From Aquabacterium sp. CECT 9606 (GTDB taxonomy: Bacteria > Pseudomonadota > Gammaproteobacteria > Burkholderiales > Burkholderiaceae_C): a stretch of DNA of 64,000 nt. The notes below the pieces were generated by a model that saw nothing but the letters and a program-made list of their open reading frames with translations, was not told the origin of the DNA and made no database searches. This document shows positions 57,843-61,042 of this stretch, in pieces. Made by a program: the position numbers and the translations under genes. Numbering within the stretch: position 1 is the first letter of the stretch; each line of letters starts with the position of its first letter. The stretch is from NCBI RefSeq assembly GCF_918741295.1, contig NZ_CAKKNB010000002.1, forward strand, positions 124,001 to 188,000. The letters are read 5' to 3'.

Positions 57843-59423
57843 TCAGGCGGGTCGAATGTCCACCTGGAAGCGTGCCACGGCGTCGTTCAGGCCCTGGGCT
57901 TGCTGGCGCAGGCTGTCGGCGGCGGCGGCTGATTGCTCCACCAACGCGGCGTTCTGTTGCGTCATCTGGTCCAGCTGGCTCACCGATTCGCCCACGTGGC
58001 TGATGCCCAGAGACTGCTGCTGCGTCGCGTCGGCGATCTCGCCCATGGCCTGCGTGACGCGGCGTATGGCGTCCACGATCTCGGCCATGACGTTGCCGGC
58101 ATCCTTCACGCGCCTGGACCCCACCTCCACGCGCTCTGCCGACTGGCCAATCAGGCCTTTGATCTCCTTGGCCGCGTCGGCGCTGCGCTTGGCCAGCAGC
58201 CGCACCTCGCTGGCCACCACGGCAAAGCCCCGGCCTTGCTCGCCAGCACGGGCCGCTTCCACGGCCGCGTTCAGCGCCAGGATGTTGGTCTGGAAAGCGA
58301 TGCCATCGATCACGCCGATGATGTCGCTGATCTGCTGCGAAGCCTTGCTGATGTCGGCCATCTGCAGCACCACGCTGTCGACCACCAGGCCGCCTTGCTC
58401 TGCGCGCTGGCAGGCCGTGTCGGCCAGGGTGTTGGCCACATTGGCCGACTGGGCCGATTGCGCCACGGTGGTGCTGAGCTGGTCCATCGACGAGGCCGTT
58501 TGCTGCAGATTGGAAGCGGCCTGCTCGGTACGGTCGGACAGATCCTGGTTGCCGGCGGCAATTTCGGTGCTGGCCACCAGCATGTTCTGCGAAGACTGGC
58601 GCACGGAGGCCACCATGGTGCGCAGCGATGTCTGCATGTCCTTCATGCACGTCATCAGGCGGGCGATCTCGTCGTGGCCGCGCGGGTTGATCTCTTGCGT
58701 CAGGTCGCCATGCGCGATGGCCTGGGTGTGGGCTTCGGCGCGCTTGAGTGGGCCCGTGACGGAGGCGATGGTCAGGCCCATCAGCGGCAGGAAGATGATG
58801 CCGGGCGACAGCAGCAGGGCCCACAGCGAGATGATGGCGTTGTTGGCGCTGTGGCTGACCTTGGCGCGGCGGGCCTGGGCCAGCTTTTCGATGTCAACGT
58901 TGAGCTTGGCCACGATGGCATCGATTGTGTCGCCTTCGGCGCGTTGCGGTTCACTGGACTGGAAGGCCTCGGCGGGCGAGGTGATGGCCGACGAGTTGAT
59001 CAGCTCCAGCGTGGGGGCCAGGCCTTTGCCGTAGCTCTGCAGCTTGGCTTCCACCGACTTGACCTGCTCGGCGATGGTGGCGTTGGGGGCCACCTGGGCC
59101 AGGTCTTGCGTGGCTTTCAGGGTGCTGACCAGCGAGGTTTGCCAGGCCTTGATGTGGGTCGAGGCGGACACCGAATCGCCCGTGTTGATGATGGCCGACT
59201 TCTCGAATCCACGCAGTTGGCCCAATTGCAATGCCAGGGTGCTCATGCGCTGGGTGGCTGAAAATTCTTGCGTGGCAAAGGCGTCGAATTCGCCGCGCAG
59301 TTGTGACAGTTGCCAGGTGGAGCCGGCCCCCACGATGAGGCCGATCACCACGACCAGGGCCATGCAGGCGAGCAGACGGGCGCGGATTGAAAATCCACGC
59401 AACAACGTGATCCAGGAACTCAT
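57843..59423 (-). CDS. Methyl-accepting chemotaxis protein
   Basis: [55 protein letters not shown]; start MSSWITLL. Confidence 0.95.
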   Translation of the reverse strand: MSSWITLLRGFSIRARLLACMALVVVIGLIVGAGSTWQLSQLRGEFDAFATQEFSATQRMSTLALQLGQLRGFEKSAIINTGDSVSASTHIKAWQTSLVSTLKATQDLAQVAPNATIAEQVKSVEAKLQSYGKGLAPTLELINSSAITSPAEAFQSSEPQRAEGDTIDAIVAKLNVDIEKLAQARRAKVSHSANNAIISLWALLLSPGIIFLPLMGLTIASVTGPLKRAEAHTQAIAHGDLTQEINPRGHDEIARLMTCMKDMQTSLRTMVASVRQSSQNMLVASTEIAAGNQDLSDRTEQAASNLQQTASSMDQLSTTVAQSAQSANVANTLADTACQRAEQGGLVVDSVVLQMADISKASQQISDIIGVIDGIAFQTNILALNAAVEAARAGEQGRGFAVVASEVRLLAKRSADAAKEIKGLIGQSAERVEVGSRRVKDAGNVMAEIVDAIRRVTQAMGEIADATQQQSLGISHVGESVSQLDQMTQQNAALVEQSAAAADSLRQQAQGLNDAVARFQVDIRPA

Positions 59424-59520
59424 TTTTGTCTCCGAGGGCAAACTTTCAGCTATTGCGTGTATCGGTTGATTTGAGGTTGGACTTGAGTGGTTTGTGCTTT
59501 TTTGGGGCAGCGCGGGGTGG

Positions 59521-59738
59521 GGGATTCGGCGGAGGCAGGCGGGGCTCCTATGGGGGCAGTCCACCGCTGCGCGGCGGACTGCTCTCGGTGCTCGGCCACG
59601 GCGGGCGGCTGCGGAACTCGCTGGCCTGCGGCCCGCTCAGACAGTCCTCGCCGACCCCTCGCGGTGCGAGGGGCAACCCGCCGTGGCCTGTGCGCCTCGA
59701 CGCCCCCGAAGTCGCCCCGCCCGCCTCCGCCGAATCCC
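59521..59738 (-). ncRNA. Structured palindromic module 1: candidate non-coding RNA or dispersed element
   Basis: 25-nt closing inverted arms (59521-59545 / 59714-59738, one mismatch), 12-bp stem 59594-59605/59677-59688 (perfect), 12-bp hairpin 59556-59567/59571-59582 (one mismatch), 8-bp hairpin 59655-59662/59666-59673 (perfect). Both mismatches become G-U on the minus strand. Confidence 0.5.
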
Positions 59739-59791
59739 TGATCCACCCCGCTGGCGGCGCAGCACGAAATGCGGCCGTGGCAGGCCACCAG

Positions 59792-60041
59792 CGGGGCGAA
59801 ACAAGGGCTGGGTGGGTGTCCGGCAGGGCGCCTTGTTGGTGCCGAGGAGCGCAGCGGCGAGGTGGGCGCGCGAAGCGCGCATCGTCAACTGACTTGTCGC
59901 CGATGTTTGAACGCAGCGCCTGGAAGGCGCGAAGAGAGTTTCGGCGACACCACCTCGCTGCGAGCACCGCAAGGCAGTCCCGCGACCAGCGGGACCACCA
60001 ACACGAAGCCCTGACGGATACCCGCCCAGCCCTCGCCCCGT
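59792..60041 (+). ncRNA. Structured palindromic module 2: candidate non-coding RNA or dispersed element
   Basis: 25-nt closing inverted arms (59805-59829 / 60008-60032; 22 Watson-Crick, 2 G-U on + strand, 1 G-A), inner stems 59834-59841/59996-60003, 59857-59865/59950-59958, 59895-59903/59941-59949, hairpins 59866-59880, 59916-59930, 59977-59995. Confidence 0.5.
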
Positions 60042-60058
60042 GCTCCCCGATAAAGCGA

Positions 60059-61042
60059 TCAATAAACGCCAGGCTCCCCAGGCGGCCTTGTCTTGAACCG
60101 CTTATGCACCCACAAATACTGAGCCGGCCTTTTCAAAATCTCCGCTTCGATGATCCGGTTCAACCGCGCTGTGTCTGCCTCGGCATCCGCCGTGGGAAAG
60201 TCTTTGATCGGCGGTAAAAAATGGATGCGCCAGCCTTGCCCGCCCGGCAGCGTCTCGGCAATCACCGGCTGCACCACCATGTTCAGCATGCGCGCCATGC
60301 GCGAAGGTGCCAGCAAGGTGGCCGCCGGCACGCCGAAAAACGGCACAAAGGCCGCGTCCTTGGCCCCAAAGTCCATGTCTGGCAGGTTGAAAAACCCCCG
60401 CCCCGCCTTGATCGCCCTGAACAGCGGCTTGACCGAATCACTGCGCGGAAAAATCTCGGCGTCGCCAAAGCGCAGGCGGCCGCGCTTCATCGCCTCGTCG
60501 ATCACCGGGTTGCTCTGCTTTTGGTAAATCGACGCCCCTGGGCGTTGCTGCTGCAGCAGGATCGAGGCGCCCGCCACGTCCAGCCCCACGAAATGCGGGC
60601 ACAGCCACATGGTCGCGCGGCCGGTGGTTTGGTACTCGCGCTCGGCCAGTTCAATGTCGCCCTCCACCTGGATCAGGCGTTTGAGGCGCTCAGCGGGGGC
60701 GTACCAGAACAATGCGCGCTCCAGCAGGCTGCGCGCCAGCCAGCCGAAGTGCTCCTTGACCAGCGCGCGTCGCTCGGCCTCGGGCATCTGGGGGAAGCAC
60801 AGCTCCAGGTTGCGCAGCGCGATCTTGCGGCGCGAGCCCGCCAGGGGGTACAGCACGGCGCCCAGCCCGCGGCCCAGCGCGGCCAGCAATGGCAAAGGCA
60901 ACCACGACAGCAGCCACAGCAGGCCCAGGGCCAGGCGAACACCCAGGACCTTCAAGGGGCGTCCTTGCAGGGCGGGCTGGTCAGCATGTCGGCCTTGGGT
61001 TGCTTGTAGCGGTTGTAGCCCCAAAGGTATTGCTGGGGGCAC
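60059..61042 (-). CDS. Lipid A biosynthesis acyltransferase (LpxL/HtrB family)
   Basis: HX4D motif HFVGLD; YLWVHKRFKTRPPGE; true start probably internal near 60950 because the ORF overlaps the upstream gene. Confidence 0.9.
   Translation of the reverse strand: MPPAIPLGLQPLQATQGRHADQPALQGRPLKVLGVRLALGLLWLLSWLPLPLLAALGRGLGAVLYPLAGSRRKIALRNLELCFPQMPEAERRALVKEHFGWLARSLLERALFWYAPAERLKRLIQVEGDIELAEREYQTTGRATMWLCPHFVGLDVAGASILLQQQRPGASIYQKQSNPVIDEAMKRGRLRFGDAEIFPRSDSVKPLFRAIKAGRGFFNLPDMDFGAKDAAFVPFFGVPAATLLAPSRMARMLNMVVQPVIAETLPGGQGWRIHFLPPIKDFPTADAEADTARLNRIIEAEILKRPAQYLWVHKRFKTRPPGEPGVY

What the first reader, a model, noticed from the sequence alone, without database searches (positions are those of the whole stretch)
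59521..60041. Two-module, heavily self-complementary non-coding element between an MCP gene and the acyltransferase pair
About 520 bp without a credible gene is organised into two adjacent modules (59521-59738 and 59792-60041). Each is bounded by 25-nt inverted arms and filled with nested perfect 5-12 bp stems, several abutting without spacers as in coaxially stacked RNA junctions. Ordinary GC-rich intergenic DNA would not be expected to give two independent 25-nt inverted pairs each enclosing further hairpins. From memory only, I associate similar spurious-ORF translations (e.g. CVQTSATSQLTMRASRA, VPQPPAVAEHREQSA) with hypothetical proteins in Comamonadaceae-type genomes, which would suggest a dispersed, perhaps mobile or regulatory, family.
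Basis: partly seen in the sequence, partly recalled or inferred. Interest (0 to 1): 0.8.

Follow-up and report, generated by a model that had tools for sequence, protein, structure and literature searches.

The report
Giant folded repeat between converging genes
The non-coding stretch is one copy of an apparently undescribed family of large, folded DNA repeats, carried by many genomes of the Comamonadaceae and related Burkholderiales, usually where two neighbouring genes run into each other, and used as a landing pad by an RNA-guided jumping gene.

Summary
59496-60056 folds far better than shuffles on both strands (z about -12). It is one of at least 16 copies in this genome and belongs to a dispersed family found in 53 of 301 sampled genomes of its family (31 of 141 genera), and in none of about 270 sampled outside it.

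48 of 64 consensus pairs show compensatory changes and internal-loop sequence is conserved. G.U versus A.C counts favour the outward strand as the RNA-like one.

In this genome 13 of 16 copies lie between convergent genes, ends mostly 6-52 bp from both stop codons (background 12%). Orthologous sites show full, one-module, stub and empty states, mostly deletion scars, plus exchange of modules between sites. No transposase, target duplication, Rfam, plasmid, phage or virus match was found; RAYT is excluded as mobiliser.

An IS110/IS1111-type element is inserted in the module's conserved loop in two relatives, and its predicted seekRNA guides match each target exactly.

Best reading: a giant REP/BIME-like repeat acting as a bidirectional transcript-end element. 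The function is inferred, not shown. New variant of a known kind.

The parts
59496..60056 (.). Whole element: terminal inverted repeat GCTTT(TTT)ggggcAGCGCG ... CGtGCTccccGATAAAGC enclosing two inverted modules and a spacer hairpin
   Evidence: Alignment of 14 own-genome copies shows conservation ending at these sequences
59509..59749 (-). Module M1. Inward (outer-to-inner) sequence is on +; the RNA-like (outward) strand is -
   Evidence: Homologous to reverse complement of M2; G.U 42 vs A.C 24 gains on outward strand
59749..59793 (.). Spacer hairpin C (CCCCGCTGGCGGC ... GCCACCAGCGGGG) joining the modules
   Evidence: the repeat finder I3, conserved in own-genome copies
59793..60044 (+). Module M2, RNA-like (outward) strand +; outer end 15 bp from the acyltransferase stop codon
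   Evidence: Covariation 48/64 pairs; G.U 121 vs A.C 41 gains on outward strand
59904..59940 (-). Conserved internal-loop core of M2 (AACTC.CT.CGCG...CGCT.CG.TCARACA), used as family signature
   Evidence: Pattern scans
59615..59644 (+). Counterpart of that core in M1 (AACTC...TCAGACA)
   Evidence: Alignment
59836..59856 (+). IS110/IS1111 target site A; AG core at 59845-59846
   Evidence: IS inserted exactly here in the orthologous copy of G004 and in another copy of G015
59955..59972 (+). IS110/IS1111 target site B; AG core at 59963-59964
   Evidence: Five IS right ends in G001 all abut modules here
60059..60994 (-). Flanking gene: LpxL/HtrB-type lipid A acyltransferase family protein, stop codon next to M2 outer end
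   Evidence: NCBIfam PRK06946/TIGR02207
57843..59422 (-). Flanking gene: methyl-accepting chemotaxis protein, start codon about 85 bp from M1 outer end
   Evidence: NCBIfam, ORF list

Best explanation
A large, ancient, interspersed repeat that works like a giant REP/BIME. SHOWN: each unit is a ~245-nt module with a conserved branched fold; two modules face each other around a hairpin; in this genome copies sit mainly between convergent genes with their ends next to both stop codons; modules are exchanged between sites and lost by deletion; the conserved loop is a site-specific target of an RNA-guided IS110/IS1111 element. INFERRED: the element is a bidirectional transcript-end device. Read-through from either gene transcribes the near module in inward sense and the far module in outward sense, the strand on which G.U pairs are tolerated, so each transcript would end in a very stable branched structure that stalls or ends transcription and shields the mRNA 3' end. 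The inverted pair makes this work for both genes. At the window's own site it lies between two co-directional genes, where it would separate the acyltransferase transcript from the MCP gene. How copies were first spread is unknown.
For: Repeat family and copies; inverted same-family modules here and in many named genomes; covariation against shuffles and slid controls: 492 two-sided cells vs 129 shuffled, 94.9% paired vs 38-44% when slid; 13/16 own-genome copies between convergent genes vs 42/354 background intergenic regions, none divergent; outside the genus, outer side faces a stop codon in 60 of 81 modules and divergent regions are nearly avoided; outward-strand G.U excess in three data sets, as in RNase P sense and unlike its antisense; orthologous states and module exchange, M2 orthologues 82.4% vs paralogues 81.1% identical; seekRNA guide-target match.
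Against: No expression or termination data. No conserved U-run family-wide and no terminator call inside the element. Single modules in other genera between co-directional genes show little orientation preference (about 14 vs 11, my count). Position at gene ends may only reflect removal of copies that damage promoters. Gene calls come from a home-made caller checked only on the window; orthologous copies in relatives are not independent.
Confidence: 0.5

Rival explanations
1. Selfish non-autonomous mobile repeat (MITE/REPIN-like) with no cellular function, mobilised in trans by an unidentified enzyme; copies survive only where harmless, at gene 3' ends.
For: Dispersed copies at unrelated sites, some own-genome copies 94-96% identical, avoidance of divergent promoters, terminal inverted repeat.
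Against: No transposase recurs beside copies; RAYT presence does not track the modules; no target-site duplication seen; most sites shared with relatives and 'empty' sites carry remnants; absent from plasmids, phages and viral contigs; two-sided changes and conserved loops at old sites suggest continuing selection.
Confidence: 0.33
2. An independent structured non-coding RNA gene family, made from the outward strand and acting in trans.
For: Outward-strand G.U excess, conserved unpaired loops across genera while stems change completely.
Against: No sigma-70-like promoter in 59300-60300, no conserved sequence upstream of the RNA-like 5' end, many copies per genome, no Rfam relative.
Confidence: 0.12
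3. DNA-level role: hairpins or cruciforms as binding sites for gyrase or nucleoid proteins, or templated palindrome correction keeping the arms matched without selection.
For: Large inverted repeats in both strands; two-sided changes far outnumber one-sided ones.
Against: The strand asymmetry of G.U over A.C is not expected for a strand-symmetric DNA role; loop conservation is not explained by palindrome correction.
Confidence: 0.1

Closest known systems
REP / BIME repeats of enterobacteria and pseudomonads
   Same: Dispersed, intergenic, enriched at gene ends, foldable, alternating orientations, exploited as site-specific targets by IS110-family elements (PMC1525189, PMC11208160)
   Different: REPs are 20-40 nt single hairpins (PMC3733652), often >100 copies and tied to RAYT (PMC2817692); here a ~245-nt branched module, tens of copies, no RAYT link, conserved internal loops
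BRE, Beta-proteobacterial repeat element (PMC3110155)
   Same: Dispersed GC-rich intergenic repeat, overlapping taxa (Polaromonas, Delftia, Acidovorax, Rhodoferax, Bordetella)
   Different: 75-91 bp, tandem arrays, VNTR; no inverted ~245-nt modules described. Its sequence is not in the paper's text, so homology could not be tested
Enterobacterial RU/ERIC and other MITE-like repeats (RU-1 127 bp, RU-2 168 bp; PMC2759123)
   Same: Small non-coding intergenic repeats with inverted-repeat ends
   Different: Single imperfect palindromes, half the size or less; no internal multibranch fold of this kind known to me
IS1111/IS110 elements with seekRNA or bridge RNA (PMC11187229, PMC11208160)
   Same: The element inserted in the module has DEDD transposase domains, subterminal inverted repeats, downstream non-coding region and two guides matching both target strands
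   Different: It is the guest, not the module; the target is a new repeat family

Membership tests
REP/BIME | Short (20-40 nt) single-hairpin unit | tested here: not met
   Module ~215-256 nt with 7 helices
REP/BIME | Extragenic, dispersed, multi-copy | tested here: met
REP/BIME | Units in alternating (inverted) orientation | tested here: met
REPIN/RAYT system | Associated RAYT (Y1_Tnp) transposase | tested here: not met
   Module-rich genomes without RAYT and RAYT-positive genomes without modules
MITE of a DDE transposon | Target-site duplication and matching autonomous transposase | tested here: inconclusive
   None found, but sites are old and flanks diverged
Any Rfam family | Score above gathering cut-off | tested here: not met
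   No match in the window; below cut-off only chance hits
BRE | Sequence homology to the ~90-bp BRE | not testable with these tools
   Sequence not printed in PMC3110155 text
BRE | 75-91 bp unit in tandem array | tested here: not met
   ~245-nt units in inverted pairs
IS1111-type IS (the inserted element, not the module) | PF01548 + PF02371 transposase, downstream NCR, subterminal IR, guides matching both target strands | tested here: met
   sTIR GGACGCCTCCC/GGGAGGCGTCC read

The most novel reading that the evidence does not exclude
A new class of structured RNA element: a ~245-nt module with conserved internal-loop motifs, functional as RNA from its outward strand, deployed as inverted pairs between convergent genes as a bidirectional transcript-end insulator, and spread through a bacterial family by an unknown route.
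Probability: 0.3. Interest if true: 0.8.

Novelty: new variant of a known kind. Interest (0 to 1): 0.64.

Why it matters
A repeat family this large, this strongly covarying and this widespread has, as far as I could find, no name, no Rfam entry and no paper. It gives a testable case of repeats shaping the ends of converging transcripts, and a natural, high-copy genomic target for a programmable IS110/IS1111 element whose guides change together with the target. It may also explain recurrent 'hypothetical proteins' in these genomes as translations of a non-coding repeat.

Tried and rejected
Protein-coding reading: no Pfam or NCBIfam hit, frame-breaking indels. Known RNA: none. Plasmid, phage or viral origin: no match. 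Cargo-carrying transposon with the modules as ends: the DNA between distant inverted modules in L059, L060, L061 and L066 holds ordinary unrelated genes. RAYT mobiliser: excluded. Recurrent neighbour gene as mobiliser: only common families. U-run after the module as intrinsic terminator: not family-wide (my outer-stem finder often stopped at the inner helix, so this test was weak). First gene callers collapsed onto antisense frames and were replaced. Most IS110 copies in the genus (20 of 22 loci) are not in modules, so targeting belongs to one IS subgroup only. Literature searches found no description; the library is open-access only.

Full report
Observation. The 520-bp non-coding stretch between the MCP gene and the acyltransferase gene is real and strongly self-complementary. 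Both modules have inverted arms of 37-38 nt at 84-86% complementarity. Both strands fold about 12 standard deviations below dinucleotide shuffles. No ORF in it matches Pfam or NCBIfam and no Rfam family matches.

Anatomy. BLAST inside the genome (5.1 Mb, 18 contigs) finds 43 matches at about 18 places, seven of them near full length at 84-100% identity. An alignment of 14 copies fixes the ends: GCTTTGTC-ggggAGCGCGGGG on the left and CCCCGCGCTgccc-GAYAAAGC on the right, a terminal inverted repeat; nothing beyond is conserved. Inside are module M1 (59509-59749), a hairpin spacer (59749-59793) and module M2 (59793-60044). M1 is a diverged inverted copy of M2: the two align end to end when one is reversed (score 83 against 35 +/- 6 for shuffles), and copies in related genomes match both probes at once.

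Structure. In 59 modules of the genus the consensus has 64 pairs, 48 with changes on both sides. Against shuffles, 492 two-sided cells versus 129; 94.9% of cells paired versus 38-44% when partners are slid by 1-3 columns. Across other genera the stems change completely (for example Hylemonella gracilis, L181) while loop sequences such as AACTC, TCARACA and GTCAG persist. Part of the loop conservation in the cross-genus set is built in by the search pattern. To ask which strand is functional I counted independent gains of G.U and A.C in stems: outward strand 121:41 (M2 genus), 42:24 (M1), 120:73 (other genera); RNase P, a true RNA from the same genomes, gives 26:11 in sense and 25:29 in antisense; unpaired positions show little C>U over G>A bias. 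This favours an RNA read outward from the centre: + strand for M2, - strand for M1. It is statistical evidence, not proof of transcription.

Distribution. In whole genomes: 53 of 301 in the family, 31 of 141 genera, up to about 20 matches per genome; class-wide only members of the same family match; reversed-pattern controls give zero. None in viral contigs, plasmids or phage records. Plus-then-minus pairs 290-500 bp apart recur, so the inverted pair is the family's architecture. Two hits in MAGs labelled Gammaproteobacteria (L157, L184) may be binning errors.

Context. With a gene caller trained on these sequences, 13 of 16 own-genome copies lie between convergent genes and 3 between co-directional ones, none divergent; background intergenic regions are 12% convergent and 23% divergent. 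By my arithmetic the chance of 13 of 16 at 12% is about one in a billion if copies are independent. Ends usually lie 6-52 bp from the stop codons. The window's copy is one of the three exceptions: M2 abuts the acyltransferase stop, M1 lies upstream of the MCP start. In other genera the outer end faces a stop codon in 60 of 81 modules and divergent regions are nearly avoided.

History. The MCP-acyltransferase site lacks the element in most genus members and holds it in G063 and G004. At 15 sites compared with four close relatives I find full elements, single modules, terminal stubs (G034:C14, G014:C115) and empty sites, most of the latter with remnants of the ends, so loss by deletion dominates. 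Modules also move between sites: M2 orthologues are no more alike (82.4%) than paralogues in one genome (81.1%), while own-genome M2 copies at sites s001, s002 and s008 are 94-96% identical. At other sites (s074, s009) orthologues do group together. This fits ectopic gene conversion or replacement. No target duplication and no recurrent transposase were seen, and RAYT does not track the family. The birth mechanism is open.

An RNA-guided guest. In G004 the copy at this very locus is split by an IS110-family transposon (NF033542, 283 bits; PF01548 and PF02371). An 84% identical IS in G015 splits another copy at the same base, and five IS right ends in G001 all abut modules at the mirror site. 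The IS has subterminal inverted repeats and a downstream non-coding region, as IS1111 elements do (PMC11187229). That region carries two guides around a hairpin: TTCCGCTTCT and TGCTGAGA in G004, TGCGCTGCT and CGCCGAG in G015, each matching its own target on opposite strands and not the other's. A 10-nt match occurs by chance in about 0.05% of random stretches. IS621 and ISPa11 use REP sequences in the same way (PMC11208160, PMC1525189). Other IS110 subgroups in the genus are not in modules.

Verdict. The family is real, structured, ancient and, as far as I could search, undescribed. It resembles REP/BIME in habitat, inverted arrangement and use by IS110, but fails REP membership by size, fold and lack of RAYT. 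BRE (PMC3110155) shares taxa but is a 75-91-bp tandem repeat; homology could not be tested. The most likely role is a bidirectional transcript-end element; that step is inference. A purely selfish repeat is the main rival.

Noticed in passing
L099:1852-3277 (G004) and L300:1501-2927 (G015): IS1111-type insertion sequences whose predicted seekRNA guides match the module's conserved loop and differ together with the target; natural reprogramming within one IS subgroup.
   Followed up: yes
G001 contig ends (L301, L312, L315, L316, L318): Multi-copy IS right ends all abut modules at target site B; the IS insertions in modules probably break this assembly.
   Followed up: partly
L098 (G034:C36:99000-108000): At the orthologous MCP-acyltransferase gap G034 carries a ~5.7-kb insert with an AbiEii nucleotidyltransferase (PF08843, E=1e-39) and a 1361-aa protein with an N-terminal HTH: a possible defence cassette using the same intergenic spot.
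   Followed up: partly
G250 contigs C11, C13, C33: Same-orientation module pairs 476-479 bp apart at several places, suggesting tandem duplication of a ~477-bp unit in that genus.
   Followed up: no
G083 chromosome C1: 15 reverse against 5 forward matches; possible orientation bias along the replichore.
   Followed up: no
L157 and L184: Module signature in MAG contigs labelled Gammaproteobacteria (one of them Wenzhouxiangella); binning error or transfer.
   Followed up: no
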